The translations under genes were made by a program, and so were the position numbers. A DNA stretch of 64,000 nt from Lacinutrix jangbogonensis (GTDB lineage: Bacteria > Bacteroidota > Bacteroidia > Flavobacteriales > Flavobacteriaceae), in NCBI RefSeq assembly GCF_000797445.1, contig NZ_JSWF01000025.1, positions 62,001-126,000 of the forward strand. Direction: 5' to 3'. Below, in pieces: positions 1-14,829 of this stretch (position 1 is its first letter; the number at the start of each line of letters is the position of its first letter). The notes under the pieces are model-generated. The model was not told the origin of the DNA, ran no database searches, and saw nothing but the letters and a program-made list of their open reading frames with translations.

Positions 1-78
1 AGCTCTTGGCTCATTGAGCACTGCTTGTTGCTCTATCGTTAAGTCCGTAATAACTGGAAGTCTAAAAAAATATGCCAT
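1..78 (-). CDS. Partial CDS: N-terminus of a possible superfamily I helicase in the BREX operon
   Basis: Only the first 26 codons lie in the window. They start with ATG at 78 and run off the left edge with no stop. The peptide begins MAYFFRLPVITDL and continues with TIEQQAVLNEP. A phrase of the form LTxEQxxxL just after the start resembles the Q-motif region of UvrD/Rep-type helicases, and a Walker A would be expected a few residues beyond the edge. The start is 2 bp after the stop of the AlkB-like gene, so it belongs to the same transcript. Helicase is an inference from very little sequence; pglZ or another BREX accessory gene cannot be excluded. Confidence 0.45.
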   Translation of the reverse strand, partial: MAYFFRLPVITDLTIEQQAVLNEPRA

Positions 79-80
79 AT

Positions 81-695
81 CTATTTTATCACTCTAAAGG
101 TTAAATTAACACGTTCTCCTAATGGTTTTTTAGTCTTTGGTATTTGATGTTTCCAATAATGTTGCAGTTCGCCTTGCATAATAAGAAGACTTCCATGTTG
201 CAATACAATATCTATACGTTCACCAGTATCTTTATGCTTTAATTGAAACTTACGTTCTTCCCCAAAGTTTACAGAAGCTATAACAGGATTTTTTCCTAAT
301 TCTTTTTCTGCGTCCGTATGCCACGAGATAGAATCACTACCATCTCGATAACGGTTAAGCAACACACTATTAAAAACAACATTTGCTTTAGGCTCTATAT
401 CGTTTTTAATTTTTGACAATCCTGGACTCCAAAGATGTGGCTGTAAGGTAATCCCAGAAAAACTATACGGTTTATCATTATCGCCATACCAAGATGTTAA
501 TCTCGGAAATGGTATTTGTTTCCCATACATATTCATAGATTCTTGTTTCCAATGTATATCTTCAATTAAGCGTTTTAAATATTTATCGGCAGTTGACTTG
601 TCGTAAAAATTTGGAATATAAATATATTCCCCATTTTCTATTTTAATAGGCTTACCGTGTTCTAGTGGTGTTGAAAACATATCTAGTGTATCCAT
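81..695 (-). CDS. AlkB-type Fe(II)/2-oxoglutarate-dependent dioxygenase within the BREX operon
   Basis: A 204-residue protein of AlkB size and layout. The metal-binding triad is visible as H126-x-D128 (in SISWHTDAEKELG) and H183. The 2-oxoglutarate-binding signature RVNLTFR gives R195 and R201, spaced as in E. coli AlkB. Proteins of this family oxidatively remove alkyl groups from N1-methyladenine or N3-methylcytosine, or act on RNA or protein. The gene starts 4 bp after pglX and ends 2 bp before the next gene, so it is an integral operon member. A role in repairing or editing methylated bases during BREX defence is inference; a plain repair enzyme carried along is the alternative. Confidence 0.88.
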   Translation of the reverse strand: MDTLDMFSTPLEHGKPIKIENGEYIYIPNFYDKSTADKYLKRLIEDIHWKQESMNMYGKQIPFPRLTSWYGDNDKPYSFSGITLQPHLWSPGLSKIKNDIEPKANVVFNSVLLNRYRDGSDSISWHTDAEKELGKNPVIASVNFGEERKFQLKHKDTGERIDIVLQHGSLLIMQGELQHYWKHQIPKTKKPLGERVNLTFRVIK

Positions 696-699
696 ATCT

Positions 700-3600
700 C
701 TACTGTATTTCCGTTACATCAATCCAATCAAACTTTCTAACTTTATCCTTGGCTTTTTCATCATTTAAACCTGAAACAGATTTAATAACAGTACCAAACT
801 TATTATAGTTAACCAACACACCATCATCTAGATCTATAGCAATACGCTCTGTAGCTATTTTAAATAACTCACGGTCGTATTCTTGTAGTTCTAAGAGTAC
901 TTTGTTTAAACGTGCTTGTTCTTTTTCTGCACTTACTTTCTCTCTATCTGTACCTACATTTTTAACGTGATCTAATTGTTGGTTTTGCGCTTTTAACTTT
1001 TCTTGGTATTGTTTAAGATAACCATTAAGCACTGTGTTAAGCGTATCTGGTGTGTAGCGATGCATATAAATTAATGCATTAAACGCACCAGAAGGCGAAG
1101 AAAACAGCCAGTAAATAGGACGTTTTTTATAACGTTTTACATGATCTGTGTAAAAGGTCTTTAAAAAGTATTTACGTATATCCCCTACAGCATCTTCTAA
1201 GAACGCCAAGTTTTTATCAAAGTTAGGCTTACCAAATGTTGCTTTTAAGAAGGCGTAAAAACGACCAACAATATCATCCTCAAACCACTCGTTGTCTAGC
1301 ACTGGAATCACGTTATCATCATCTGGTACAAACGTGAGATCTTCTAATGTTTTAAATTTAGAATTAGACGCTTGTAAGTTCTCAAGATAAGTTTCTAAAG
1401 TTTCGCCTTGATTAGCAAGTATTAAACCTAGTTTATCTATACTATAGCGCCCAAACATACAACCTACTGCGTAGCTTATAAACTGCGCCATAATTTCGCT
1501 TTCGCGGAATACTAAATTACCATCCTCAATTTTAGTTTCTTCTTTAAGAATGGTAATGTCTTTTAGCGGCACTTCTGGTGTTAACTCGTCTTGTAAACCA
1601 TAGATATCTATAAACTGACGATTGAGCTCTTCTTCATTTTTATGTAACTTAATGAATTTATTTTGCCAGTTTTGGCAAAAGTTGTTGTAGACCGCTTCTA
1701 AATCATGACCAGAAATACGAATAAGTTCATTCTGTTTAAAGTTCCAAGAATTTTCTCTCGAATTCCATTCAGTTTTACTTATATCTACATTCTCCGAACT
1801 GAAGTTAAAAACGTTTTCGTTGTAAAAATCTTCTAAATAAGGTAATTTATTAAAATATCCTACGTGGAAGTGCATTGTTGGATTCAATAGTTGAGCAAGC
1901 TCTGTAGTTATCTTTAAGTTCGCAAATGCCATCATACAATACTTCCATTTCATATCCATACCAAATGCAGAATGTGCGCAAGCATCATTTATAAAACCTT
2001 CTTCATAAAATCTGAACGCATTTTTTGAAGAAGTAATGTCGCTCCAACTTATCGACTCGTTAAAATGATACTTTGGATTCCTAATTACAGATAGTTGCTT
2101 ACCGCTTTCATTAGTGAAATCTCTTATTTCTTTACCGTTATTTTCCCAATTGAGATAGTAAATTTGATTTCCATACCATTTTCGGTATGCACCACCTTTA
2201 TTGTATTTATACCAAACACTATTAAACCTTTCCTGTCCAACTTCAGACCAGATTCTTAAAAATCTTTGATTATAAGCAGTAGCAAGTCCTTGTTTAGCCT
2301 CAGCAAAATCTCCAAGGCTTGGGTTTTCGTCAATCAAGTTATATATGACCTCGTTTAACCAATAACCAATTGGATTACCTGGTATTTTTTTAAAATCTTG
2401 TTGATTTGTAGTATAGAACCATCCACAATTTGGATTCACTATGGCTTCTAAAGTTTTTGGCTTTTGGCTTTCTACTCCCTTAAAATCAGAAAGTCTAATA
2501 TAATTACCAAAGTAGCTCTTGTTAAATGAATTTCTGAGTACAAAAGAACAAATTGGGACTACAGCAGGCCCAAATGCATTGTATTCCAATTGTACTAAAT
2601 TGGTAATTGTTTTTTTATTAATTACAAAATCTCGTAACGAAACATATGATGTCAGGAACATCCATACGTATGGACAAATAAAACCAACGAGTCCTTCATC
2701 TTTTGTGAAATTTGTAACTTGAACTAAAAAACAAGCAAATAAATCAGATTTTGTTTCTTTATATTCTTTTTCAACAAATTGCTTTAAAGTACCTTCCATA
2801 TAGGAAGAATTTAAATATGGTGGATTGGTAACTACTATATCATACTTACCTGATAAAAGGTCAGCCTGTCTTTTTAGTTGAATTTGTTCTTGTACAAAAA
2901 GCGATGTTTCGTCAACTATTATTTTATCAGCCTCTTCCTTTGTGATTTTTATTAAAGAACCTAAAACTTTAGCATTATCAAACTTAGGGTTAGACGAAAT
3001 ATTTTGGAATGATGTAATATTAGGCACTATTGCTTTTTTAAACAAACGTCTATAAGCTTTCCTACCTTTCATCATTAAAGCAAACCCAGCTATTTGTGCA
3101 GCACGATCATCTATATCAATTCCGTAAAGATTTTTTGTAATTATTAATTCAGGTATTTCAATTGGGTTATAACCCTCTTCTTCGTATATTTTATAAAAAA
3201 TATCAAAAGCATAACAAAGTACGTGAGCTGAACCAACACAAGGATCAAAAAAGGTTATATCTTCGATTGAATTAACGTTTCGTGAAAGGATTAATTCTGG
3301 ATTATTGGGTTTTATATAAAATTCTAAGTCATTTATAATTGCCGTAGATGGTCTCGCTTCTTTCCATAATTGCCCTAAAGTATTGTCAACCATATATTGC
3401 ACAATCCACTTAGGCGTGAACAACTGTGTTACTGGTGCAATTTCTTCAGCCTTATATCTCTTTTTAGCATTAATTAATTCATCTTTCCTTTCAGAAATAT
3501 AAAACTGATATAGCCATCCTAAAATTTCAACTTCTATGCAATCTTCAGGTTGCATCCCAATTCTAATATCTTCTATAATAGAAAAACTAGAAATAAGATC

Positions 3601-4110
3601 GTCTGGCAATAACAGTTCTGTATAATCATCAATCTTTTCAAATAGAAAAGGAAATACTTCATTAAGATGATTACAAGCACCCACTAATAAGGCTGCGTAG
3701 GCTTCATTTTGAGCATCTGTACTTGGTATCTTACCATCTAGCAAATCGTAAATATGCTGTTGTTGCACAGGTAATTCTTCAGGAATAGTACCTTGTTTTG
3801 CTTCTTGTAAAATAACAGGTAAGGTACCGCCTTCCATTGGGCTTACCACAGAAACACCAATAGGCTCATAACCATTAACATCCATAAAGCGTAAGGCCAC
3901 AAAGCGGTTAAACCAGGTATAAGCAACCGTATCAATCACATCACTTTTAGATGTTTTATTAATAGCTTCTTGTAGCTTTTTTAAATGGCCTGCTTTTTCA
4001 CGTAGTTCCGCACTATCTGTAGTCAATACTTTTTCAAGTTTTGCACCTATTTGGTCTATCAGTTTTATGCGTGCGTCTTGCGCAAAGCGTTTAAGTTGGT
4101 TGGTATTCAT
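700..4110 (-). CDS. pglX: BREX adenine-specific DNA methyltransferase PglX
   Basis: About 1136 residues, the usual size of PglX. The SAM-binding motif I region reads DPCVGSAH near residue 288 and the amino-methyltransferase motif IV reads NPPY near residue 428, in DIVVTNPPYLNSS. The family methylates adenine in an asymmetric site to mark host DNA and is needed for exclusion of phage. I chose ATG 4110 (MNTNQLKRFAQDAR) because it forms a TAATG overlap with the preceding stop and matches the usual PglX N-terminus; an in-frame ATG at 4131 would add seven residues. No frameshift is seen, so the specificity gene appears intact. Confidence 0.93.
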   Translation of the reverse strand: MNTNQLKRFAQDARIKLIDQIGAKLEKVLTTDSAELREKAGHLKKLQEAINKTSKSDVIDTVAYTWFNRFVALRFMDVNGYEPIGVSVVSPMEGGTLPVILQEAKQGTIPEELPVQQQHIYDLLDGKIPSTDAQNEAYAALLVGACNHLNEVFPFLFEKIDDYTELLLPDDLISSFSIIEDIRIGMQPEDCIEVEILGWLYQFYISERKDELINAKKRYKAEEIAPVTQLFTPKWIVQYMVDNTLGQLWKEARPSTAIINDLEFYIKPNNPELILSRNVNSIEDITFFDPCVGSAHVLCYAFDIFYKIYEEEGYNPIEIPELIITKNLYGIDIDDRAAQIAGFALMMKGRKAYRRLFKKAIVPNITSFQNISSNPKFDNAKVLGSLIKITKEEADKIIVDETSLFVQEQIQLKRQADLLSGKYDIVVTNPPYLNSSYMEGTLKQFVEKEYKETKSDLFACFLVQVTNFTKDEGLVGFICPYVWMFLTSYVSLRDFVINKKTITNLVQLEYNAFGPAVVPICSFVLRNSFNKSYFGNYIRLSDFKGVESQKPKTLEAIVNPNCGWFYTTNQQDFKKIPGNPIGYWLNEVIYNLIDENPSLGDFAEAKQGLATAYNQRFLRIWSEVGQERFNSVWYKYNKGGAYRKWYGNQIYYLNWENNGKEIRDFTNESGKQLSVIRNPKYHFNESISWSDITSSKNAFRFYEEGFINDACAHSAFGMDMKWKYCMMAFANLKITTELAQLLNPTMHFHVGYFNKLPYLEDFYNENVFNFSSENVDISKTEWNSRENSWNFKQNELIRISGHDLEAVYNNFCQNWQNKFIKLHKNEEELNRQFIDIYGLQDELTPEVPLKDITILKEETKIEDGNLVFRESEIMAQFISYAVGCMFGRYSIDKLGLILANQGETLETYLENLQASNSKFKTLEDLTFVPDDDNVIPVLDNEWFEDDIVGRFYAFLKATFGKPNFDKNLAFLEDAVGDIRKYFLKTFYTDHVKRYKKRPIYWLFSSPSGAFNALIYMHRYTPDTLNTVLNGYLKQYQEKLKAQNQQLDHVKNVGTDREKVSAEKEQARLNKVLLELQEYDRELFKIATERIAIDLDDGVLVNYNKFGTVIKSVSGLNDEKAKDKVRKFDWIDVTEIQ

Positions 4111-5711
4111 TAATTTTTTTCTATTAGCCATGTCCCTAGTTTATCTGAGCCTTGGCGTTTTATAATGTTTAGTTCTTTTAATTTAGCTATATAGGTTTCT
4201 ACGGTGCGAGAAGACACCTCTAAAACAGCACTAGCCTTTTCTGCCGAGATACTGCCATCGCTTATTATTAACATTAATAATTGAATTATATTTTTACTGC
4301 TTCCTCTCCGAAGCTTCTCCGAAGTTTCTCCAAAGTTACTCCGAAGCTTCTCCGAAGCTTTTGAAAAATTAGTTTCTAAATATTGTAAAAACTCGTCAAA
4401 ACTTATATTTAAAATACTTACAATCAACTCTTTATTTACTTCTTGATTTAAAAGTGCTCTCCGAAGTTTTTCTGTTGTTACTCCGAAGTTATTTTTAGTT
4501 TCGTCCGACGTTTTAGTTGTTTCTTCTTCTGTGTGCGTGTATAATTTAAGAATAGTCGCATCAAAACTAACATCATATTCTGGTACAGTATTGTTGTACG
4601 TTTTCCAATTCGCTTCTATACGATCAAAACCATAACCTGCATTTTCTGCAAGACGCACCATTCTAAATAATTTTGTAATGAGTGGATTACGCGGTAAGGA
4701 TAAATCCTTAGCTTTTAACTCTTCTAATGGTTTAGGCAATCCTCCAGGGTTATAAAACTCGATATGATTAGTAAAAACACGAATGCGTGAGCAGGAAGGC
4801 GCAAAATAATCGGCATGCATTAACATATTTACCAAGGCTTCACGTATGGCTTTTAAACCTGGTGAAAGCTCTTGACCGAAACCTTGGTCTGTTAATTGAA
4901 AAGCGACATCTACCTCTGGTTTTAAGCGTTTAAAACATTCAAAATAATAATCCCAAAGATTTTCAAACTCCCCCAATCTAAAGCTATAATTTGAAGTCGT
5001 CTCTGCTATAGAATTACCCGCTATTTCTAACAAGTCAATTCTAAAATCAGGAAAATGCTTTTCAATAGCATCTCGTTTTCCTAAAAATAATAAGCCTGCG
5101 TAGGTTAATTGGTTATTGTCTAGAATACGTAATTTGGTTAAAAACGTAGCTTCATCAAAACGGTTATAACTCACATCTGGATTAAAACGTGCCATATAGT
5201 CTCGGTACTGTTTTAATGAGGTGGCATCTATATCTTCTCTAGACGTGTTTGGCGCTAGTTCTGATGTTTTTGTACCAAAAGTCTGGTCTCTATAAAAAGC
5301 ATCTATTTCATTTTTACGTGCTTTTTGATCGCTACTAGACCTGCGTATAAAAGTATTTGACTGTGTGTTATAGTACACTGGTTTTTGAGCAGATACTGGA
5401 ATATAAAACGCCAGTACTGTTTTACCATCTATACTATAGCGTTGTTGTCTTGTGGCTACAAAGACATTAAATTTTTCGCCTCTTAAGGTGTTTAAAAAAT
5501 CTTGTTCTACCTTTTCGGCATTAGTAACGCCCTGTATTTCATAACTCTTGCCCGTTTCTTTAATACCAAACACAAGCCAACCTCCAGAAGTGTTAGAAAA
5601 AGCACTCACAGTTTCCCAGCAAGATTTGGGCACCGCAGCTTTGGCTTCTTTCACCTCAAAATCTTCCCACTCCAGGTCGTTTAATTTTGCTATGAGTTCT
5701 TTTTTTGTCAT
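4110..5711 (-). CDS. AlbA_2/Schlafen-type ATP-binding protein with C-terminal winged helix, BREX accessory
   Basis: A 533-residue protein. The N-terminal ~130 residues look like the AlbA_2 (divergent AAA-4/Schlafen) domain, with the EVKEAK and SGGWLVFGIKE region. A GHKL-like ATPase segment (LVNMLMHADY, then NPGGLP) follows around residues 290-380. The C-terminus holds several NFGxTSEKLR-type phrases and then a winged helix (residues ~465-533, SAEKASAVLEVSSRTVETY). It starts right after the brxC stop and its own stop overlaps the pglX start. Relatives are often called putative transcriptional regulators. Here it may control the operon or act as an accessory effector; its function is not established. 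Confidence 0.8.
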   Translation of the reverse strand: MTKKELIAKLNDLEWEDFEVKEAKAAVPKSCWETVSAFSNTSGGWLVFGIKETGKSYEIQGVTNAEKVEQDFLNTLRGEKFNVFVATRQQRYSIDGKTVLAFYIPVSAQKPVYYNTQSNTFIRRSSSDQKARKNEIDAFYRDQTFGTKTSELAPNTSREDIDATSLKQYRDYMARFNPDVSYNRFDEATFLTKLRILDNNQLTYAGLLFLGKRDAIEKHFPDFRIDLLEIAGNSIAETTSNYSFRLGEFENLWDYYFECFKRLKPEVDVAFQLTDQGFGQELSPGLKAIREALVNMLMHADYFAPSCSRIRVFTNHIEFYNPGGLPKPLEELKAKDLSLPRNPLITKLFRMVRLAENAGYGFDRIEANWKTYNNTVPEYDVSFDATILKLYTHTEEETTKTSDETKNNFGVTTEKLRRALLNQEVNKELIVSILNISFDEFLQYLETNFSKASEKLRSNFGETSEKLRRGSSKNIIQLLMLIISDGSISAEKASAVLEVSSRTVETYIAKLKELNIIKRQGSDKLGTWLIEKN

Positions 5712-8700
5712 TTACTTTAAGTTGATCTTAATGTTTTCGTTTATGCGCTTTAAAAAAGCTTGGCGTAACGCCTCTACATAATCGTTTACGTCTTCTTCAG
5801 TTACTAGTTCGTTCTTGTTATAATCGACGTGTATTTGAGAACGCCTCATGTATTTTGCAACAGGCTCTGCTGCTTTACCATCTTTTACTTTTGGCGCAGA
5901 CAAATTTGCCATAAGGTTTAAGGCATCTGTATGAATCTGTGATAATTGCTGTTTAGACTGGCGAATGTTTGCTATAAAACGTTCGTTTGTAATGGCACTC
6001 TTTTTCAGACTTAAAACACCTATAACATTAAGCTGTTGTTCTGTATCTAGAGCTTTAAACGCTTTACGTTTTGTAATGTCTTCAATATATTCTTCTACTG
6101 CTGCAGTAAATGTCTTTTTTTCATCTTCAATAAGTTCAATTACTTTTTTAGACAGTTCATCTTTTGCAGCTTTAGCTAATTGCACACCACTTCCTTTATA
6201 AGGTGTACTACTAGATACTAGCGTATTAAGCGTATCTAACTCATCACTTTGTATAAAATCGAAGTTTGCGGTATTGCCTTCTAATAATGTTTTAACGTCG
6301 TCGTAGATATTACGTTGCTCTCCATTCATAAAACGCTGAATAGGCGACAAGAGATCTTCTTTTGTATCTAATAAATCGTCTTCAAAATCAGATAGACTTG
6401 TAATAAAGTAACTGTAGTCTTTTTTGGATAAGCGGTCTAATTTTTCTGAGAACGGTTCTAAACTTTTTAGAAAAGGATACGACTGTTTGCGCGCCAATAG
6501 TTGATCTACATCAATACGCATTTGTGTAAGCTTATCCTTAAAAGCAACCGCCACATCTTTTGCTTCACGCAACGAACAACTTTCATCGAAAGCATCTTTA
6601 AACGCGTCTTTTAATTTTTTAATAGCGCTTGCATCAAAGGTTGCTTGCGGATCTAGGATTGTATTACCATGATAGGAACTATTGAGCAATGCGTTTAAAA
6701 AAGAGGCGTCTTCTAACAGATTAGAATCTTGCTTTGCTTCAATTTTACCACGCTTATAAAGCTTTGCAGTTACTGTCCAGATTGCATTAGGATACCAACC
6801 GTAAGGCTTTTTAATAAATGTGTTTTTAAGATCGTTAAGGGTGGTACGATCGCTGCGCTTTTTTCGTTTTAAAATCTCACTCAAAATTTCGCCTTCTGCT
6901 TCAGACATTGTAGTGTCGTCGTCAGTAAATAAAGTCTCTGGCGCAGTATGAACTGTGTTTTTAATAGTGTCTTCAGTAAAAGAAACAGACTTTAACATAC
7001 GTAGGTTAGGATATACTACAGCTACCAATTTTTGAAACGCATTGATAACTCGTGTTTTTCCGTCGCTAGAATTTGATAGTTCTAATTTACCGCCATTAAG
7101 GTACACTTTAGATTCCGCTAAACCTTTATTAGCCATTACTATTAAATTCTTCTTACGCGTTACATTTTGCATCGACTTTTCTTGAAGAATACGTGCGACT
7201 TGAGGTCTAATTCCAGAACCTCTATTTTGCATTTCGAATTTAGCAGTTTTAATATACATTCTAACATCACGCATAAAAGTTGCGTTAGATGCCAACACAA
7301 GTTTCATACCTGTACTTCCCATAGTTTGGGATTGTATGAAGGTTTCTTTATCGTAATCTTGGTAATTATCTGTAATAATTTCTATTTCTAGTTCTTTTTC
7401 TCGACCAAAGAAACTGCCATCTATTTTATTAGTAAAATCATAATCTTGTTTGTTCTCTAAGTACTTGATTTTACTGTCTCCTATAATTTCATCAAAGAAG
7501 ATATCTTTAAGCAACTGCGTGACTGCTTGTTCGTCAATATCTGTATTCTTAATTTCTTCTTCTACATCTTTTTCATCATCTGTTAAAAACTCGTAGATGT
7601 CTCCATTACGCTGTACATAACTTTGATTTTCTAAAATCGTTAATGCGGCATCAATTTTTGTTTCGTGCGCCTTAAGATCTACATTAATATCGTCTATTAA
7701 TAATACCGAAATATTACGTTTTGTTGTTTTAAAATTAGCGAAGTACTTTACTAAAAACAAGGCTTTAAGTACTTTGATAGCAAAACGATCCTCTAATTGC
7801 TTTTCTGCAAGAATGATGGATTGTTGTATTTCACCACGTAACTCGTTACGAATACCTTCGAACATTAAATCGAAGCTTACCAAGGCGTTATTATCGCGTT
7901 CTTCTATAGCGCGAATAACCTGTTGAAATACACCAAGCATAGAACGCTCGCCTACAGAAGCGTGTTTTCCTTGAAAAGCATTATGGTTTGATAATGCGAT
8001 TCTACATTGTTGAAACAAATCGAATTGATACGGAACAAAAGGAAATTTATTTGCATAATCTGCATTATCCTTATAGCCCTTAAATTGAACACCAGCTTCA
8101 GAAAAAGATAATAGCGATTCTAAATGCGGTCCATTTTTTTTGTGCGCTTTAGCTAAGTCGTCTTGTGATTTATCATTTTTGCTAAGCAAACGTTTTTCAA
8201 TCACTTCATCTACGTTTGCAGACGTCAATGGGATTTTTATTTTGAAACGTGCTTGAATACGAGAAAAGTCATTTTGCTGACTTTTATTCATATCACCAAC
8301 AACGGTTTCCATATCTTCTTGCGAGGTTACTAAAATCCAAGAATTACCTTTTGTTTTAGTCGCTAAAGTTTCTGCTATGGTTTGCAGATTCAACATCAGT
8401 TTGGTGTTATCGCTAATGTATTGCCCAACTTCATCTACAAAGAAATTTAGTCTAAAACCTTTTGGTTTAGAGTCCACATATTTTTTAACACGATTGCAGA
8501 AGTCCTCAATGGACTGTTTGTTTTTATCTTCTAGTTCGTCAAGGATATTTGCGTACTTCTCAGGACTTTCATTAAAAATAGTTGCTAAAATATCTTTAAC
8601 TTCGACAACAAAATACTCTAAACGATCAACTTCCCAAGTTGTATCATTTACCTTTTCATATTCAGTTTTAAAGGCCTCATATTTTCCTTTGCCATCTAAC

Positions 8701-9194
8701 CACATTTCAAACTCTGCAACGTGAGGTTGAAAACCGTAATATCCTAAATGGTCATAGAACACTTTATAGAACACAGATAGAATAGCATTTGCATCTTCTT
8801 TACTTGTAATCTGAGCTTGTTGATCGATGTTAAACAATACAGACTCTGAAGGTATGCGCGTCGCCTTTAAAATATCAGCTTTTAATGCGTCGTCGTTATC
8901 TACTTTTTCTGCAAATAACTCTCCAGATTTCCAACCATCGTGCTCTTTGTTTTCAAGAACATACGATATGATTTTTAACAAGTGAGATTTACCACTTCCA
9001 AAAAAACCAGAAATCCAAACACCATTGGCACCAGAATAATCATTATAAGCCTGAAAAAAGTCTTTTATCTTTTTTCCTATTTCATTAGTAATGACATACT
9101 CGGTAACTTCAGTTGAAATGTTATCACGGTCATCTGCTTTAATAACTGTTTCAATTTCACGATCTATTGGTTTTTCAAAATATTGTTTAATCAT
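5712..9194 (-). CDS. brxC: BREX system P-loop ATPase BrxC
   Basis: 1160 residues, typical for BrxC. A Walker A motif GFFGSGKS sits at residues 63-70, and an acidic FFVDEVGQYI segment gives a Walker B-like site. The rest is the long helical body of this family. BrxC is a large AAA-type ATPase and a core part of BREX, needed for defence and, in type 1 systems, for efficient host methylation. Its ATG overlaps the end of brxB by 4 bp. No internal disruption is seen. Confidence 0.93.
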   Translation of the reverse strand: MIKQYFEKPIDREIETVIKADDRDNISTEVTEYVITNEIGKKIKDFFQAYNDYSGANGVWISGFFGSGKSHLLKIISYVLENKEHDGWKSGELFAEKVDNDDALKADILKATRIPSESVLFNIDQQAQITSKEDANAILSVFYKVFYDHLGYYGFQPHVAEFEMWLDGKGKYEAFKTEYEKVNDTTWEVDRLEYFVVEVKDILATIFNESPEKYANILDELEDKNKQSIEDFCNRVKKYVDSKPKGFRLNFFVDEVGQYISDNTKLMLNLQTIAETLATKTKGNSWILVTSQEDMETVVGDMNKSQQNDFSRIQARFKIKIPLTSANVDEVIEKRLLSKNDKSQDDLAKAHKKNGPHLESLLSFSEAGVQFKGYKDNADYANKFPFVPYQFDLFQQCRIALSNHNAFQGKHASVGERSMLGVFQQVIRAIEERDNNALVSFDLMFEGIRNELRGEIQQSIILAEKQLEDRFAIKVLKALFLVKYFANFKTTKRNISVLLIDDINVDLKAHETKIDAALTILENQSYVQRNGDIYEFLTDDEKDVEEEIKNTDIDEQAVTQLLKDIFFDEIIGDSKIKYLENKQDYDFTNKIDGSFFGREKELEIEIITDNYQDYDKETFIQSQTMGSTGMKLVLASNATFMRDVRMYIKTAKFEMQNRGSGIRPQVARILQEKSMQNVTRKKNLIVMANKGLAESKVYLNGGKLELSNSSDGKTRVINAFQKLVAVVYPNLRMLKSVSFTEDTIKNTVHTAPETLFTDDDTTMSEAEGEILSEILKRKKRSDRTTLNDLKNTFIKKPYGWYPNAIWTVTAKLYKRGKIEAKQDSNLLEDASFLNALLNSSYHGNTILDPQATFDASAIKKLKDAFKDAFDESCSLREAKDVAVAFKDKLTQMRIDVDQLLARKQSYPFLKSLEPFSEKLDRLSKKDYSYFITSLSDFEDDLLDTKEDLLSPIQRFMNGEQRNIYDDVKTLLEGNTANFDFIQSDELDTLNTLVSSSTPYKGSGVQLAKAAKDELSKKVIELIEDEKKTFTAAVEEYIEDITKRKAFKALDTEQQLNVIGVLSLKKSAITNERFIANIRQSKQQLSQIHTDALNLMANLSAPKVKDGKAAEPVAKYMRRSQIHVDYNKNELVTEEDVNDYVEALRQAFLKRINENIKINLK

Positions 9195-9775
9195 AGCTTA
9201 GCTTCTATTTTATCCATGTTAAATGCGCGGTAGTAATTGTCATCTTTTAATAAACCGAAAAGATTTAAAGTGTGTCCGTTATAATCTCCAGGGAAGAAAG
9301 CAACTGTTGGTGCTTCTTTTGCTATGTTTTGAAGATTGTTAAGTACGTTATGAGAACGTATAAATGGAAATACTAAACCTATTCCTGTTAAGAAATACAC
9401 CTTTGCATTGTTAGATTCTATTTTTTGTTTTATTAATGGCATCAACACTTGATGCATATTTAGAGAAGACTGTAATGCGCTTAAAAATTTATCCTTAGAT
9501 TTTATTTTTTCAACCTTGAACATGCGCTCCATACCACCTTTAGATTCTAAAATCTCGCATACGAGTTCGTAAAGATTTAGTTCTAAAATGGGTACGCCTT
9601 TGTTTTCTAGTTTCTTTTTCAGCAAACCTATTTCTTCTCTGCACGCTAATTCTTCTTCAGCTTTATAAGATGAAATGAAAAATGGTATCTCGCCTCCTAA
9701 TGATTCTTTATTCTGAAAATTAGATGTAGAAATCACATTAAATAAATGCTCGAATTTTTGTGTAAGATTACCCAT
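9191..9775 (-). CDS. brxB: BREX protein BrxB (DUF1788 family)
   Basis: A 194-residue soluble protein beginning MGNLTQKFEHLFNVIS. It fits the DUF1788/BrxB family in length, in the NLYELVCEIL and FLTGIGLVFPFIRSH segments, and in its place between brxA and brxC. BrxB is a core component whose biochemical activity is not settled. It starts 2 bp after brxA and overlaps brxC by 4 bp. Confidence 0.9.
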   Translation of the reverse strand: MGNLTQKFEHLFNVISTSNFQNKESLGGEIPFFISSYKAEEELACREEIGLLKKKLENKGVPILELNLYELVCEILESKGGMERMFKVEKIKSKDKFLSALQSSLNMHQVLMPLIKQKIESNNAKVYFLTGIGLVFPFIRSHNVLNNLQNIAKEAPTVAFFPGDYNGHTLNLFGLLKDDNYYRAFNMDKIEAKL

Positions 9776-9777
9776 GT

Positions 9778-10380
9778 TTATGATTTCAAAGTTTGAATAT
9801 CAAAATCACTTAATAAGAAAATTTTGAACAATTCTGAATTATCATTGAGAATCGCTTTCCTAGTTTCAGGCTCTATCATTTGAGGTTGTATCATTTTTGA
9901 TTTTATGTTATTTATCAATCCTGCTTGTTCTAATATTTTAAAGGTGACTTGTTTTACCTTTTTTTGAGTGACTTCAGTTAGTTGCTCCATTTCTGGATGC
10001 TGTTCTGCCTTTCGACGGAAAAAAGAAAGGTAATCACCTTCTGTGATCTCATAATCATATACTAAATACTTTTCACGGATTACTTCGATAATAAAATCAC
10101 GTATAAAAGCGAAATTTTTACATGCTGCAATGAATGTCATTTCATTCTGAACTTTATAACTACCTTCTAGTAGCATCATTTTTTGATTTTCTGTTAGCGT
10201 ATTAAGCCATTTACACATCTCTTTATAATACCGATTTCCTGTTGCTCTTTTACCGTTACCCAAAACACCTTCAATGTCTTCAATTGGATGCTCTAAGACA
10301 TGCTTAGCCACGAGCACTAATTCTCTCGTGCGAAGAGAAGCAGCAGTAAATGAAAACTTATATTTCTTTATTGCAACCAT
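9778..10380 (-). CDS. brxA: BREX protein BrxA (DUF1819 family)
   Basis: A 200-residue protein beginning MVAIKKYKFSFTAASL, with a helical NusB-like build (RTRELVLVAKHVLE, then NRYYKEMCKWLNTLT). This is the DUF1819/BrxA family, a small DNA-binding core component and usually the first structural BREX gene. Its ATG shares one base with the stop of the small upstream regulator (TAATG), which suggests translational coupling. Confidence 0.92.
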   Translation of the reverse strand: MVAIKKYKFSFTAASLRTRELVLVAKHVLEHPIEDIEGVLGNGKRATGNRYYKEMCKWLNTLTENQKMMLLEGSYKVQNEMTFIAACKNFAFIRDFIIEVIREKYLVYDYEITEGDYLSFFRRKAEQHPEMEQLTEVTQKKVKQVTFKILEQAGLINNIKSKMIQPQMIEPETRKAILNDNSELFKIFLLSDFDIQTLKS

Positions 10381-10556
10381 TAACTCGTTAATTCTGTTAA
10401 TGGAATATTTAAAATCTCACTTATTTTCTGACAGTTTTTTAAGGTTGGTTCACTTTTACCTTTCACCCAATTACTAACAGAAACTTCGCTAACACCTATT
10501 TTATTTGCAAGCCATTTTTGTTTAACTCCTTTCGATTTCAAAAATTCTTTAAGCAT
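10380..10556 (-). CDS. Small Cro/C1-type HTH regulator heading the BREX operon
   Basis: A 58-codon gene that a 60-residue cut-off would miss. It begins MLKEFLKSKGVKQKWLANKI and contains GVSEVSVSNWVKGKSEPTL, a clear XRE/Cro-C1 helix-turn-helix in which residues ~12-34 form the DNA-binding helices. The ATG is at 10556 and the TAA shares its last A with the ATG of brxA. The protein is only a DNA-binding domain with no sensor part, so dimeric autoregulation of the operon is likely. Known BREX regulators such as BrxR are larger WYL-domain proteins, so this is a different type. Confidence 0.85.
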   Translation of the reverse strand: MLKEFLKSKGVKQKWLANKIGVSEVSVSNWVKGKSEPTLKNCQKISEILNIPLTELTS

Positions 10557-10592
10557 ATCTAGTTTAATAAAAATTAAAGTTTGTCTTCATAT

Positions 10593-10600
10593 CAAAGTTA
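10593..10600 (-). promoter_or_regulatory. Candidate -7 element (TAACTTTG) of the BREX operon
   Basis: On the minus strand TAACTTTG matches the Bacteroidota TAnnTTTG element and lies 36 bp before the regulator ATG. No convincing -33 TTTG is visible at the right distance, so only the -7 half is supported. Confidence 0.45.
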
Positions 10601-10731
10601 AGAAAAATGTTTAATAGAAAACATGATTTTTATTAGTTATTGCTTTTTTTTAAAACAAACCGATAATCTACTCAAGACTTGCCCATTAAGGTGTTATTCA
10701 ATTTTATGCCAGTAAAATATTTAATAACTAT

Positions 10732-10917
10732 TTACTTCCTGTACATTACATCATATAATATAAGTGCCATTCCAACACATAACATTGGAAATCCAATCCA
10801 TAATAACATTCTACTGCCATTAATTGCGGAATGCATAAAGCCTATTCCAAAGCACTGTACCACAAATCCAATTATAGATAAAGTATGTTTTTTTACGTTT
10901 GAAATTTTAATCTTCAT
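10732..10917 (-). CDS. Small two-helix membrane protein of unknown function
   Basis: 61 residues from ATG 10917 (MKIKISNVKKHTL). Two hydrophobic segments are seen, SIIGFVVQCFGIGFM and MLLWIGFPMLCVGMALILY, with a positively charged N-terminus. The start lies inside the last 11 bp of the upstream secreted-protein gene, in another frame, which suggests coupled expression. An in-frame ATG at 10968 would add 17 residues but overlaps the neighbour more. No family recognised. Confidence 0.55.
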   Translation of the reverse strand: MKIKISNVKKHTLSIIGFVVQCFGIGFMHSAINGSRMLLWIGFPMLCVGMALILYDVMYRK

Positions 10918-11629
10918 CAAAAAAGAATTCATGGATTTCGATAATATTGCCTCTTTTAATTTGCACAAGATCTTTAGTATCTTTTATAAAAATCCCTAGA
11001 GATCTTTCGTTGTAAAGTAATTTCATTTTAGATGAATAATCTGTAACCACGTACATATCGCCAGAAAGCTTAAAAAACGGAATCACTAATTTACTTTTCA
11101 CTTTCACACCTTTGTTAACCACCTTACCTTCTCTTAATGTTGCTTCTAAGGTTTCTTTATTTTTTTCTTCTGAAGACACTTGAACATAAGCAACCATCAT
11201 GTTCATCCATTCTGTATCCTCTATTAAATACCAATTCACTTTCTCGAAATCTATACCGTATTCACTAATCCAACCACGACTGGTAAACCCAAAGAGTATT
11301 TGTTTTTTACCATCTAATTCTGGCTTATTGCTTGGTGTAAATTCTTGAATTTTAAAGGTTATTACGGAAGCTGAAGACATATCTTTTAGTTTTTTTCCAT
11401 TAAAATCGAGTGTTTTTAAGGAAAAACTAGCAAGACTTGGTTCGTTTGTTAACACCCATTGTGTAGCGGTTAGCTCTGCGCGTTCTTTCATTTGCTCCAC
11501 TGCTGCAATACCTATTCCAATGGCTAAAATCCCGCCTACTACAGCTGCAGCAGCTTTGTTTTGGGTGTATGATTGTTTTGGAATTAAGACCATTGCCAAT
11601 AGACTTAAAATTAGAATTAGTTTTTTCAT
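10907..11629 (-). CDS. Secreted protein of unknown function
   Basis: 240 residues with an N-terminal signal peptide (MKKLILILSLLAMVLIPKQS, ending near YTQ). A short glycine/alanine-rich hydrophobic stretch follows (AAAAVVGGILAIGIGIAAVE, residues ~27-45) that may be a second membrane segment. The rest is mixed beta/alpha with an acidic C-terminus (EFFFDED). I recognise no family. It overlaps the small membrane protein downstream and is separated by a terminator from the two-component genes upstream. Confidence 0.6.
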   Translation of the reverse strand: MKKLILILSLLAMVLIPKQSYTQNKAAAAVVGGILAIGIGIAAVEQMKERAELTATQWVLTNEPSLASFSLKTLDFNGKKLKDMSSASVITFKIQEFTPSNKPELDGKKQILFGFTSRGWISEYGIDFEKVNWYLIEDTEWMNMMVAYVQVSSEEKNKETLEATLREGKVVNKGVKVKSKLVIPFFKLSGDMYVVTDYSSKMKLLYNERSLGIFIKDTKDLVQIKRGNIIEIHEFFFDED

Positions 11630-11689
11630 TTATACGTTTTTTGAGCTTGTTTTTAAATATGATGCTAACCTAAATCTTTTAAAGAAAAA

Positions 11690-11713
11690 ACCCTTACGGG
11701 AAACCGTAAGGGT
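11690..11713 (-). terminator. Rho-independent terminator after the response regulator
   Basis: A perfect 10-bp stem (ACCCTTACGG / CCGTAAGGGT) with a 4-base loop. On the minus strand it is followed by TTTTTTCTTT, so it terminates the transcript of the two-component operon, 32 bp after the regulator stop. Confidence 0.85.
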
Positions 11714-11744
11714 GAAGAATATTTAATAAAAACAACTAAAAAAA

Positions 11745-12409
11745 TTAAATGAGCCCAATATCTTTAGCAATTGAAACCAAATGAATAGTATTATTAGCAG
11801 CAAACTGTATTTTTAGTTTATTGATTTTCTTTTCTATAGAACTTAAACCAAAAGGTGCCATATTATTACTTTTAAGAAATTGAGAGATTTCATCTTGAGA
11901 TAAACCTAATGATAGCCGACGAAGTAGCTCTACATCGAAATCATCAATCTCTAAATCCGTTTTTGGGTTTAATGCCGATGTCACTTGATGAGATAAATAC
12001 CTATCATTCTTATACACAGCATTAATTGCAGCATTTAGTTCTGTTAAACCTCTTCTGCCTTTGCAAACGTATGCATTTGCCTTATGTTGATTAATTAGTG
12101 TTCTTACTTTTTGCAATCGATCTTCAACAGAATACACTATTATTTTTAAATCTGGATATTCTTTTTTCAACACAGCAACCAAGGCTTCTCCTGAAGTTAT
12201 TTTTTGATTGCGGTGGTCTTTTTTATACGATAGATCGGTAATAAGTAACTCTATTGGTTCTCCATCTAAAGCTGCTTTTTAATTTTTAAGTACGCATCAT
12301 CGCAATACTGGACGTCTTGTACATCTTTAATGTCAAGTGTATCTAAAACGGATAAGACACCTTGATTAACACTCAACAAATCGTCTGAAACTAAAACTTT
12401 TTTAAACAT
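11745..12409 (-). pseudogene. NarL/LuxR-type response regulator, frameshifted as read
   Basis: From ATG 12409 the frame encodes a receiver N-terminus (MFKKVLVSDDLLSVNQG) and meets a stop after KIKKQL. The following frame supplies the rest: ALDGEPIELLITDLSYKK with the phospho-acceptor Asp, the conserved Lys in AYVCKGRRG, and a C-terminal HTH (SLGLSQDEISQFL). Adding one A to the A5 run at 12276-12280 joins both parts into a 221-residue protein of normal length. The start is 2 bp after the kinase gene, so the two form a pair. Either a sequencing error or a recent real frameshift; the coding remainder shows no decay. The later ATG at 12182 would leave a truncated protein. Confidence 0.8.
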
Positions 12410-12411
12410 AC

Positions 12412-14046
12412 CTATACTTTAATTATAGCTTTAAAACCTTTATTGGTTTCAGTTTCAAAAGTAACAGTTCCTTTTATTGTAGAAATACGGTTTTCCACAT
12501 TCTCCAATCCATTTGCCTTTTTTAAAGTGCTACCTACACCATTATCACTATAACTTATAATTAGTTTATCTGTTGATTTTTCAAAATTTATAATAACGAA
12601 TGACGCTTCGCTATGCTTCCTCATATTCACCATTAATTCTTGTAAAACCCTGTAAATGGTCATTTTTTTTAACTTTGAATACGATTGCCAGTCTATTTTA
12701 GTCAAGTTTTTAGTTATCACATTTGTAGTACCGCTTTTATAATTAAGCAATAAATCTGTTAATACCTCTTCAAAATTTTCGGTGACAACAATTGCGTTAT
12801 TTTCTCTTGAAATATCTCTAGTCTTTGTATAAATTGACTCTAGATCATCTAAAACAGACTCATTAGTGGTGGAATCAATTTGAAGTTTGGTCATAACATG
12901 ATAGACATCGTTAGCAACCTCATCATGTATTTTTTCAGAGATACGCGCTTCAGTTTTGTAAACTTCTTCTAATTTTTGCTTTTTGTGTCTAGATTTTAGT
13001 ATTAGAATAAAAGAGATCCCAGAAATAAATATAAGTACTGCTATAAGTTTATATAATTGACTTTTCGCTTTTTCCTCTTGAGATTTAAACTCACTAGTTG
13101 TTAAATCATATTTTAATAAGGCAAACTTATTTTGGTTTTGCTTTCTAGCCAATGCTAAACTATCACTAAACTTTCTGTATTCTTTAATTACCGAATAGTC
13201 TTCCAAGTCTAAACGCAATTTTAAAGCATCTTCTCTATACGAAGGTCTGTTAACAAAATCTGCAATATTATAAGCCTTTAAAGCATAAGTAATCGCTTGT
13301 AAAGAATCTTCTTTGCTCGTGTAATATTGAGATAGATTTGTATAACTAGAATACAAATCGGAACTGTCTTTTAGCTGTTTTCTTAATTCTAAAGCTTGCA
13401 ATAGGTAGGATAAAGATCCTTCTTTATTCAAATTTAATTTAATGAGCCCTAAATTATTTAAAACTCTCGCTTTTTCGGAAGTATTAGTAACTCTGTCGAA
13501 GATATCAACAGCATCGAGCAATACTATTTCTGCTGCTTTAAATTTATTTTGATCTTTTAAAATATTGGATATATTATTATAAATAACTAAAGTATCTTTA
13601 GACTTCTTGGTTAAACCTAGTGCTTCATTATACTTATTAATAGCTTCTGAATATATTTTTTGTTCATGGTATAGTTTCCCTAAGTGGTTCCATAGAATCT
13701 TTCTTAACCAGGTATTATAATCACTATTTTCTAGTTTATCTAATATTGCTATTGCTCTTACCGCAAAAGTTTCACTTTCACCATAAAAACCAGTCTTAAA
13801 ATCTATTATTGAAATAAAATACAAATCATAAGCCGCTCCAATTTTATAATTTATTTTCTCATTATTAGCTAAATGCCTTTTAAAAAATTGGTATGCTTTG
13901 GAAAGATCATGTCCAGATTGCCCTAAATTAATTCTTTTTGAATGGTAATCTAAACTGTCTACAGGGTGTTGGGCAAACCCAACATTAAAGCATAATAATG
14001 TAAAGACTGGCAAAAAAAAGAGGAATGAATTTCTTAATGATTTCAT
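12412..14046 (-). CDS. TPR-containing sensor histidine kinase
   Basis: 544 residues: signal peptide (FLPVFTLLCFNVGFAQ), a periplasmic region of tetratricopeptide-like repeats (~residues 60-300, e.g. SEAINKYNEALGL), one transmembrane helix (LIAVLIFISGISFILIL), then a HisKA_3-like dimerisation segment with H374 in SEKIHDEVANDVYHV and a HATPase domain (ELMVNMRKHSEA, SDNGVG, GLENVENRI). It phosphorylates the adjacent NarL-type regulator. Proteins of this layout are common in Flavobacteriia; the signal sensed is unknown. Confidence 0.88.
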   Translation of the reverse strand: MKSLRNSFLFFLPVFTLLCFNVGFAQHPVDSLDYHSKRINLGQSGHDLSKAYQFFKRHLANNEKINYKIGAAYDLYFISIIDFKTGFYGESETFAVRAIAILDKLENSDYNTWLRKILWNHLGKLYHEQKIYSEAINKYNEALGLTKKSKDTLVIYNNISNILKDQNKFKAAEIVLLDAVDIFDRVTNTSEKARVLNNLGLIKLNLNKEGSLSYLLQALELRKQLKDSSDLYSSYTNLSQYYTSKEDSLQAITYALKAYNIADFVNRPSYREDALKLRLDLEDYSVIKEYRKFSDSLALARKQNQNKFALLKYDLTTSEFKSQEEKAKSQLYKLIAVLIFISGISFILILKSRHKKQKLEEVYKTEARISEKIHDEVANDVYHVMTKLQIDSTTNESVLDDLESIYTKTRDISRENNAIVVTENFEEVLTDLLLNYKSGTTNVITKNLTKIDWQSYSKLKKMTIYRVLQELMVNMRKHSEASFVIINFEKSTDKLIISYSDNGVGSTLKKANGLENVENRISTIKGTVTFETETNKGFKAIIKV

Positions 14047-14829
14047 TCCTCTAAAATAGAAACAAAATTTTAGTTATTTACTACCTTGACTCGTTTTTCA
14101 TCATATGTTGATTATCGTATTGAATCTATAAAAACACGACTGTAGAACTTATATAAAATATTTATTAATTACATGAAAATTTTACTAAATTGCAGTTCAA
14201 TTTATTTTTTTAACCCAAGGTTAAACTGCATACGATTGCATACGATTTAGAAAAACACAAAGCTTGGTAATCCCTATAAACAGGCGTTTTTGAATTTATT
14301 TTAATAATTCATAACTCGGAGGTCATGGGATAAATTGTCGCTCTCTATATAGGCTGAATTCATTGCAATACTATTTTATATCTAAAGCTTATCACACGCA
14401 AATATTAAGTATAAATAAACTGTCTACACAAAAAAACTACAGCTCTAAAAAACTTTTGTAATACCTAATAAAATAAACTTGCCATTAGAAATAATATCGT
14501 AAAGTTAAAAGCGCTTTCAACTATAAAGAGACTTACAATAAATAACATGCTAATAATACATTAGTAAGCTATTCATTTTATAATGTTGATATCATAAGTG
14601 TTGATTAGCTATATACTTTTAAGATTATTGATATTAACACCATTGGGTTAATGCTATTTTTATATGACATAATAAACAATTTGAAACCTAGTAAAGCTTA
14701 AAAGGAAATGGAGTTAACAGTGTAAATTCAATTATAACCGGTAGTTGTATTTCAGGATAAAACATTAAAAAAAATAATTTGTAACATTTTGACATTCTTT
14801 GTCTCTAAATAAAAAGTAAAAGAAACAAA
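14047..14829. other. 783-bp intergenic region between divergent operons
   Basis: No gene could be supported. It holds a 7-bp inverted repeat just upstream of the kinase start (CTAAAAT/ATTTTAG, 14051-14073), a perfect tandem copy of TGCATACGAT at 14227-14246, and at its right end an ECF-type promoter. The rest is A+T-rich with stops in all frames examined. Confidence 0.6.
14780..14808 (+). promoter_or_regulatory. Candidate ECF sigma promoter of the hydrolase-sigma operon
   Basis: TGTAAC at 14780-14785 and GTCTCTAA at 14801-14808 are spaced like the -35 and -10 elements of ECF-sigma promoters in Bacteroidota (TGTAAC ... GTCT). The ATG of the first gene follows 21 bp later. Because the operon encodes an ECF sigma factor, autoregulation is the simplest reading. 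Motif knowledge plus position only. Confidence 0.5.

What the first reader, a model, noticed from the sequence alone, without database searches (positions are those of the whole stretch)
1..10556. BREX operon with an unusual accessory set
brxA, brxB, brxC and pglX are clear, and eight genes are packed with overlaps or gaps under 10 bp. To the core are added an XRE-type mini-regulator, an AlbA_2 protein between brxC and pglX, an AlkB-like enzyme after pglX, and a possible helicase. This combination is not the textbook type 1 layout (brxA-brxB-brxC-pglX-pglZ-brxL).
Basis: partly seen in the sequence, partly recalled or inferred. Interest (0 to 1): 0.75.

Follow-up and report, generated by a model that had tools for sequence, protein, structure and literature searches.

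The report
BREX operon hosting second defence cassette
A bacterial anti-phage operon of the BREX kind lacks one usual gene and carries, between two others, a four-gene cassette of probable nucleic-acid-modifying enzymes that also occurs alone in other bacteria and looks like a separate, little-known defence system.

Summary
The operon is real and reaches left past window position 1: HTH(58 aa)-brxA-brxB-brxC-SLFN/AlbA_2-pglX-AlkB-SF1 helicase-ART/ARG-methyltransferase-pglZ, all frames open, spacing from a 22-bp overlap to a 59-bp gap. brxL was not found in the genome, though it follows pglZ in 28 of 29 other same-phylum BREX loci. Unusual is the four-gene block between pglX and pglZ. The block occurs elsewhere with no BREX gene in the stretches read: helicase and ART/ARG adjacent in 14 of 14 loci (9 found through the helicase), methyltransferase next in 10 of 11 readable; AlkB can be replaced by DUF1848. 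Two stand-alone copies lie near Lamassu and CBASS genes. The pglX-pglZ position is occupied in 19 of 24 readable loci; 7 of 10 scanned occupants match catalogued defence families. I conclude that an independent, largely undescribed defence cassette is nested in a brxL-less type-1 BREX operon. Its chemistry (ADP-ribosylation and methylation, each with a possible reversing enzyme) is inferred from domains only.

The parts
10380..10556 (-). 58-aa Cro/C1-type HTH protein, first gene; conserved backbone gene of this BREX lineage, overlaps brxA by 1 bp
   Evidence: Pfam HTH_3 E 6e-15; same 58-aa ORF before brxA in G733, G220, G091, G715 = 4 of 4 examined
9778..10380 (-). brxA (200 aa)
   Evidence: Pfam PF08849 E 1e-38; PADLOC BrxA
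9191..9775 (-). brxB (194 aa)
   Evidence: Pfam PF08747 E 2e-42
5712..9194 (-). brxC ATPase (1160 aa), P-loop GSGKS visible in the translation
   Evidence: NCBIfam NF033441 1025 bits; 89 % identical to G733 BrxC
4110..5711 (-). Schlafen/AlbA_2 + HATPase_c_4 + weak wHTH protein (533 aa), cargo at the brxC-pglX junction
   Evidence: Pfam SLFN_AlbA_2 E 5e-19, HATPase_c_4 E 7e-14, HTH models below their cut-offs; known BREX companion (PMC12839542)
700..4131 (-). pglX (brxX) adenine methyltransferase (1143 aa), NPPY motif visible in the translation
   Evidence: NCBIfam NF033452 1228 bits; 85 % identical to one of two G733 PglX
81..695 (-). AlkB-like 2OG-Fe(II) oxygenase (204 aa), first gene of the nested cassette; HxD...H...R conserved, ALKBH2/3-type N-terminal stretch
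   Evidence: Pfam 2OG-FeII_Oxy_2 E 3e-34; ALKBH3 E 3e-40; PADLOC CARF_2OG, C-terminal part of that model only, 196 bits; alignment
1..78 (-). start of the SF1 (UvrD-like) helicase gene, 347 aa; the rest lies left of the window (contig C25:61035-62078 = L003:9035-10078)
   Evidence: Pfam UvrD_C E 1.5e-10, SLFN-g3_helicase E 5e-10. Further left, outside the window: ART/ARG 551 aa (L003:7320-8975; PF22546 E 3e-24, PF22545 E 3e-17), methyltransferase-like 480 aa (L003:5874-7316; own Pfam hits all below cut-off; profile of seven homologues hits SAM methyltransferase 1im8 E 3e-5), pglZ 832 aa (L003:3368-5866; TIGR02687 704 bits)

Best explanation
This is a type-1 BREX operon (HTH-brxA-brxB-brxC-pglX-pglZ) without brxL that carries two cargoes: a Schlafen-type gene between brxC and pglX, and a self-contained four-gene cassette (AlkB, SF1 helicase, ART/ARG, methyltransferase) between pglX and pglZ. 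The cassette is an independent anti-phage system that used a recurrent cargo slot of BREX operons. Proposed working (inferred, not shown): the SF1 helicase engages or unwinds invading nucleic acid and presents it to the ART domain, which transfers ADP-ribose from NAD+; the ARG domain of the same protein and the AlkB (or, in other loci, DUF1848) enzyme reverse such marks or related base lesions on host nucleic acid; the methyltransferase adds a second mark and forms a writer/eraser pair with AlkB. With brxL gone, PglZ, the Schlafen protein and this cassette would be the operon's effector arm, while BrxA-B-C, PglX and PglZ could still methylate the host. Shown here: gene content and order, no brxL found, the cassette elsewhere with no BREX gene in the stretches read, use of the same slot by proteins of catalogued defence families. 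Inferred: defence function, nucleic acid as substrate, reversal role, any replacement of BrxL.
For: Cassette as a unit (loci): helicase and ART/ARG adjacent in 14 of 14 loci with ART/ARG. Nine of these were found through the helicase, so adjacency there is partly selected; of the three non-own loci found through PF22546, 3 of 3 have it. Methyltransferase next in 10 of 11 where the contig continues (not L021). AlkB (7) or DUF1848 (4) at one end in 11 of 12 readable (not L021), no locus showing both. No BREX gene detected in the stretches of the 13 other loci. L020 has the same order (62, 46, 31, 33 % identity) and its helicase pairs with the window's in a tree (support 81/82, moderate). Neighbourhood: LmuB (Lamassu) 2 kb downstream in L024; cyclase and phospholipase effector (CBASS type) about 5 kb upstream in L025; MT+AlkB beside a reverse transcriptase in L118. 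Insertion: own DNA matches G733 at 77-81 % along brxA-C, pglX and pglZ and stops within about 15 bp of the gene borders at each cargo. Slot occupied in 19 of 24 readable loci; 7 of 10 scanned slot proteins match Septu, Shedu, HEC-01A, HEC-06, TmtA-like or GajB-like models, and G733's helicase matches PDC-M16A. AlkB and MT domains recur in the G223 slot; an SF1 helicase with an ART-like partner in G091 and L131. brxL: G733 BrxL finds nothing in the own genome but matches 3 of 3 control genomes; TIGR02688 finds nothing. BrxL dispensable for methylation, needed for restriction: PMC9122589, PMC10164562 passages.
Against: ART and ARG names rest on Pfam models alone. The ART profile does not resemble DarT above shuffles (43 of 200 reach the score), so DNA as substrate is unsupported. 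hhalign's own probabilities for the ART-like partners are low (16-22 %), and those two partner families do not match each other (136 of 200 shuffles reach the score). No ART/ARG gene was found in the stretches of 29 other BREX loci (blastp, HMM), so this exact nesting is a single case. Rare: 1 of 299 family genomes by protein, 4 of 395 phylum genomes by PF22546. Of ten neighbours of stand-alone copies scanned, three match defence families strongly, one weakly, six not at all. Cassette AlkBs fall in two groups: those of L014, L022 and L025 are only 26-28 % identical to the window's and that of L024 gave no blastp hit to it. Several stand-alone loci are on short or metagenomic contigs, and G604 has a BREX on another contig, so distant cooperation cannot be excluded. 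Related helicase cargo in G091, L131 and G223 sits beside a full-length brxL.
Confidence: 0.6

Rival explanations
1. The cassette is not an attacker but a self-protection or repair module: AlkB, ARG and the methyltransferase undo ADP-ribosylation or alkylation inflicted by phage enzymes or by neighbouring toxins, and the helicase gives access to the damaged nucleic acid.
For: AlkB is of ALKBH2/3 type, known repair enzymes (function recalled); AlkB is exchanged for DUF1848 with an invariant CX3CX2C motif (likeness to radical-SAM enzymes is recalled); MT-AlkB occurs as a pair without ART in L118 and as AlkB + MT-helicase fusion in G223.
Against: An ART writer sits in the same polypeptide as the ARG eraser in the window genome's protein, which points to a self-contained pair rather than pure repair; 7 of 10 scanned slot proteins of other loci match catalogued defence families.
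Confidence: 0.2
2. The cassette is functionally fused to BREX: its SF1 helicase replaces BrxL as the restriction factor, as other BREX types use SF2 helicases where BrxL is missing.
For: brxL not found only here and, within the roughly 3 kb read, in L147 among 30 loci; BrxL-less BREX types carry helicases (PMC12839542 section 19; PMC10164562 passages); single tightly spaced operon.
Against: G091, L131 and G223 carry helicase cargo in the same slot and still have brxL; the cassette exists with no BREX gene in the stretches read.
Confidence: 0.2
3. The BREX operon is a decaying remnant: after loss of brxL it only methylates the host, and the cassette is a passenger.
For: BrxL is needed for restriction in the Acinetobacter and Salmonella systems (passages); pglZ is followed by glycosyltransferase genes instead.
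Against: All 11 reading frames are open and the AlkB and helicase motifs are intact; brxL occurs in only 76 % of type-1 systems in print (PMC12839542 section 19).
Confidence: 0.12

Closest known systems
BREX type 1 (brxA-brxB-brxC-pglX-pglZ-brxL)
   Same: Five of six core genes in canonical order, PglZ of type A, single operon; BREX-1 PglX model
   Different: No brxL found in the genome; Schlafen gene and a four-gene cassette inserted; a 58-aa XRE protein opens the operon (the WYL regulator BrxR, known from a subset of type 1 systems, was not searched for)
BREX operons with embedded defence cargo
   Same: Same pglX-pglZ slot as Septu, Shedu, HEC-01A, HEC-06, TmtA-like and PDC-M16A-like genes in relatives
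   Different: Cargo here is AlkB + SF1 helicase + ART/ARG + methyltransferase; in PADLOC only parts match: CARF_2OG and GajB/Nhi/AbiO-like helicases for own genes, C3a159 and RTasDUF1848 for relatives' genes
Pfam '2-Component system' ART and ARG domains (PF22546, PF22545)
   Same: The 551-aa protein carries both domains in one chain
   Different: I could not find the paper that describes them; the surrounding helicase, methyltransferase and AlkB or DUF1848 are seen here as a conserved set
DarTG toxin-antitoxin
   Same: Idea of an ADP-ribosyl writer with an ADP-ribose-removing partner
   Different: No profile similarity of the ART domain to DarT above shuffles; writer and eraser are fused; extra helicase, MT and AlkB

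Membership tests
BREX type 1 | brxA, brxB, brxC, pglX, pglZ in one operon | tested here: met
   Family models for all five; co-directional with gaps of 59 bp or less
BREX type 1 | PglZ of type A or B of BREX-1 | tested here: met
   TIGR02687 704 bits, cut-off 270
BREX type 1 | brxL present | tested here: not met
   No match in own genome with G733 BrxL, while 3 of 3 control genomes match, nor with TIGR02688 (that this model is BrxL is recalled). In print brxL is in 76 % of type-1 systems, so I call it a brxL-less type-1 variant
BREX type 1 | PglX-dependent methylation of an asymmetric site and phage restriction | not testable with these tools
   Needs methylome and phage assays
DarTG | ART domain of the DarT family | tested here: not met
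   No PF14487 among the Pfam results up to E 0.1; hhalign score reached by 43 of 200 shuffles
Schlafen-type BREX companion (AlbA_2 + HATPase_c_4 + wHTH) | Domain order and close linkage to the BREX core | tested here: met
   SLFN_AlbA_2 and HATPase_c_4 above cut-off, HTH models below cut-off; between brxC and pglX
AlkB (2OG-Fe(II) nucleic-acid dealkylase) | HxD...H iron site, 2OG-binding arginine, nucleotide-recognition lid | tested here: met
   Iron site and C-terminal arginines kept in 7 of 7 copies aligned (6 cassette copies and G223); ALKBH2/3-like N-terminal stretch in 3 of 7; activity not tested
PADLOC-listed defence systems | Cassette matches a listed system | tested here: not met
   Own ART/ARG and methyltransferase have no PADLOC hit up to E 0.1; AlkB hits only the 2OG half of CARF_2OG; the helicase hits GajB, Nhi, AbiO and other helicase models

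The most novel reading that the evidence does not exclude
The cassette is a new kind of defence system built on two reversible nucleic-acid marks: an ADP-ribosyl writer and eraser in one protein, and a methyl writer with an AlkB (or radical-SAM-like DUF1848) eraser, loaded by an SF1 helicase; in this operon it has taken over the effector role of the missing BrxL.
Probability: 0.25. Interest if true: 0.85.

Novelty: new variant of a known kind. Interest (0 to 1): 0.6.

Why it matters
Cargo slots of BREX operons are a way to find unknown defence systems: 7 of 10 occupants scanned match catalogued families, so an uncatalogued occupant that also stands alone is a good candidate. AlkB, 2OG and ADP-ribos do not occur in the main text of the recent survey of BREX effectors. 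A natural brxL-less operon with an intact pglZ makes it directly testable whether PglZ plus cargo can restrict phage without BrxL.

Tried and rejected
A dead remnant without pglZ: rejected, pglZ is open and full length left of the window. The genome's other PF08665 hit (C22) looks like a PorX-type response regulator from its translation (no domain search made), not BREX. XRE regulator and Schlafen gene as the unusual parts: rejected. ART as DarT-like: tested and not supported. ART-likeness of the helicase partners in loci with a DrmB-like gene: whole-length hhalign gave only 10 % probability, and 0.2-2.5 % for three further loci; the N-terminal test beat all 200 shuffles. tblastn of the ART/ARG protein found nothing among plasmid or phage records. 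The ART/ARG profile against viral contigs gave none; the helicase profile gave one contig, DUF1848 + helicase (L017). Solved-structure searches for ART/ARG and DUF1848 gave nothing useful. TIGR02653, which I first took for BrxL, gave only two partial matches below its cut-off in other places. A vestige of brxL after pglZ: the DNA match to G733 runs about 35 bp past pglZ, too short to claim. AlkB as a cassette marker: 164 of 395 order genomes have an AlkB at E 1e-30 or better; of the five non-own hits whose surroundings I read, one has the cassette (G851), one an MT-AlkB pair (G892), three neither (G907, G816, G624), although G907's AlkB is 64 % identical. Promoter scan before the operon was no better than shuffles. 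Ten paper searches: no title or abstract start in the listings describes this cassette; most subscription papers are not held, and one that I recalled as relevant was not available. Of PMC9503650 I saw the abstract and passages: no occurrence of BREX, 2OGFeDO or AlkB.
Full report
WHAT IS THERE. The window is contig C25:62001-126000 of a 4.0-Mb genome. The minus-strand operon begins at window 10556 and continues to contig position 55368, about 6.6 kb left of the window. In order of transcription it holds: HTH protein 58 aa, BrxA, BrxB, BrxC, SLFN_AlbA_2 + HATPase_c_4 protein 533 aa, PglX, AlkB-like 204 aa, SF1 helicase 347 aa, ART + ARG protein 551 aa, methyltransferase-like 480 aa, PglZ type A 832 aa. 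Spacing runs from a 22-bp overlap to a 59-bp gap.

BREX BACKBONE AND MISSING brxL. A PglZ search of 397 family genomes gave 9 genomes with a match, own included. I fetched all 9 loci of the 8 others. BrxL directly follows PglZ in 9 of 9 (52-85 % identity to G733's BrxL, G733's own aside), and G733's copy is BrxL by Pfam (BrxL_ATPase 439 bits, BrxL_N, and a phospholipase-D-like C-terminus). A second search, of 380 phylum genomes, gave 22 with a match; I fetched the 20 loci not already in hand. BrxL is within the next two genes in 19 of 20; in L147 none is seen in the roughly 3 kb read. So 28 of 29 other loci have it. In the window's genome G733 BrxL finds nothing while it matches 3 of 3 control genomes, and TIGR02688 finds nothing. 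In published systems BrxL is dispensable for host methylation but needed for restriction (PMC9122589 and PMC10164562, passages only), yet only 76 % of type-1 systems carry it (PMC12839542 section 19).

THE CARGO SLOTS. The closest backbone found is G733 (BrxC 89 %, BrxB 92 %, PglX 85 %, PglZ 80 %, BrxA 68 %). DNA matches of 79, 81 and 77 % cover brxA-C with the HTH gene, pglX and pglZ, and stop within about 15 bp of the borders of the Schlafen gene and of the four-gene block. In that place G733 has a NERD-helicase matching PDC-M16A and a TPR-S1 protein (only weakly PDC-M16B). In 24 loci both pglX and pglZ could be read (own, 8, 15; six others are cut). The position is empty in 5 (G220, G715, both G752 loci, G228) and occupied in 19. 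Of ten slot proteins scanned, from six loci, seven match known defence families: PtuA and PtuB (Septu), HEC-06, HEC-01A, SduA (Shedu), TmtA-like, GajB-like; three match none. Schlafen-like genes sit there in L134, L135, L137. The paper on BREX effectors that I read in part (abstract, sections 19, 35 part 1, 40, term passages) reports embedded nucleases and 1017 taxa with linked Schlafen genes; its main text has no occurrence of AlkB, 2OG or ADP-ribos (supplements not seen).

THE CASSETTE ALONE. PF22546 rang in 4 of 395 phylum genomes, own included. With G310, G571, G604 and G851 this makes 14 loci with own. Gene orders: own, L020 and L116 have AlkB-helicase-ART/ARG(-MT; contig ends in L116); L014, L022, L024, L025 have helicase-ART/ARG-MT-AlkB; L018 and L019 have DUF1848-helicase-ART/ARG-MT; L016 has helicase-ART/ARG-MT-DUF1848; L015 has DUF1848-helicase-ART/ARG (contig ends); L021 has only helicase-ART/ARG; L023 and L030 are cut by contig ends; L017 (viral contig, not among the 14) has DUF1848-helicase (contig ends). 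Because nine loci were found through the helicase, its presence there is selected; the three found through PF22546 (L014, L015, L016) show the same adjacency. No BREX gene was detected in the stretches of the 13 other loci. Ten neighbours from four loci were scanned: LmuB in L024, and a cyclase and phospholipase effector (CBASS type) in L025, match strongly; one L014 gene matches an RT model weakly; six match nothing. Record titles name Bacteroides, Dysgonamonadaceae, Sphingobacterium, Mucilaginibacter, Chitinophaga and other Bacteroidetes or Bacteroidales MAGs, a Thiovulum MAG (Campylobacterota) and a Roizmanbacteria MAG.

PARTS OF THE CASSETTE INSIDE OTHER BREX OPERONS. G223 holds AlkB (69 %) and a 1502-aa protein whose N-terminus matches the methyltransferase (36 %) fused to a DEAD/Helicase_C helicase (RecQ-like by my reading), in the same slot, with brxL present. 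G091, of the same genus as the window's genome, and L131 hold an SF1 helicase (25 % in G091, with a very long tree branch) followed by a 670-673-aa protein. Its N-terminus resembles the ART profile more than any of 200 column shuffles (score 28.9, highest shuffle 22.9), though hhalign itself gives only 22 %. The same holds for a protein next to an SF1 helicase in loci with a DrmB-like gene (28.7 against 19.4; 16 %). These two partner families do not match each other above shuffles (136 of 200), and DarT does not match the ART profile (43 of 200). An MT-AlkB pair without ART stands beside a reverse transcriptase in L118.

ENZYMES. AlkB keeps the HxD...H iron site and the C-terminal arginines in 7 of 7 aligned copies; the window's copy, G223 and L020 share the ALKBH2/3-type N-terminal stretch. 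It is 69, 66 and 62 % identical to the copies in G223, G851 and L020 and 47 % to the genome's own second AlkB at C25:319464-320033, but G907 has a 64 % copy with no cassette gene beside it, and the AlkBs of L014, L022 and L025 are only 26-28 % identical. The helicase keeps Walker A, DEAQD and C-terminal motifs. The profile of seven methyltransferase homologues matches SAM-dependent methyltransferases (1im8 E 3e-5), with the glycine-rich motif. Five DUF1848 copies share an invariant CX3CX2C; calling this radical-SAM-like is from memory.

HOW IT PROBABLY WORKS. Shown: composition, order, brxL not found, the cassette apart from BREX genes, slot habit. Inferred: defence role (from slot and neighbours), a nucleic-acid target (helicase, AlkB, MT-helicase fusion), a writer/eraser logic (ART with ARG; MT with AlkB or DUF1848). 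Not supported: DarT-type DNA ADP-ribosylation. Whether the cassette stands in for BrxL is open; G091, L131 and G223 keep brxL beside related cargo, which speaks against a simple replacement.

NOVELTY. BREX with cargo is known; Schlafen cargo is known; Pfam already names the two domains of the ART/ARG protein, so someone has noticed that pair. The listings of ten searches of the open-licence library showed no paper on the helicase-ART/ARG-MT-AlkB set or its place in BREX; most subscription papers are not in that library. I rate it a new variant of a known kind (BREX with cargo), with a candidate new system as the cargo.

Noticed in passing
left of window, contig C25:49108-55249 (L004:9108-12000, L003:1-3249): Directly downstream of pglZ lies a same-strand cluster of GT2, GT2-methyltransferase fusion, a protein without Pfam hit, GT2-radical SAM fusion and QueC genes; it occupies the place where brxL is expected.
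   Followed up: partly
L118:6819-10724: A 266-aa methyltransferase and an AlkB (56 %) stand beside a reverse transcriptase (RVT_1 E 7e-20) and a 303-aa unknown gene: a possible reverse-transcriptase-linked form of the MT-AlkB pair.
   Followed up: partly
L026, L028, L043, L069 (around 5000-14300); L032: Loci with a DrmB-like gene (PADLOC scan made on L028 only; others by similarity) carry a related SF1 helicase next to a ~540-aa protein whose N-terminus resembles the ART domain (0 of 200 shuffles) and a NERD-helicase.
   Followed up: partly
L005:8063-9616 (contig C22): The genome's only other PF08665 hit reads like a receiver domain followed by a PglZ domain, as in PorX of type 9 secretion; the BREX PglZ itself weakly matches the PorX model.
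   Followed up: no
L142 and L016 (genome G604): One genome holds both a BREX PglZ-BrxL locus (contig C150) and a cassette without BREX genes beside it (contig C60).
   Followed up: no
G733 (L091:12011-18967): The closest BREX relative found has two tandem pglX genes, one 85 % and one 59 % identical to the window's PglX, suggesting exchange of recognition specificity.
   Followed up: no
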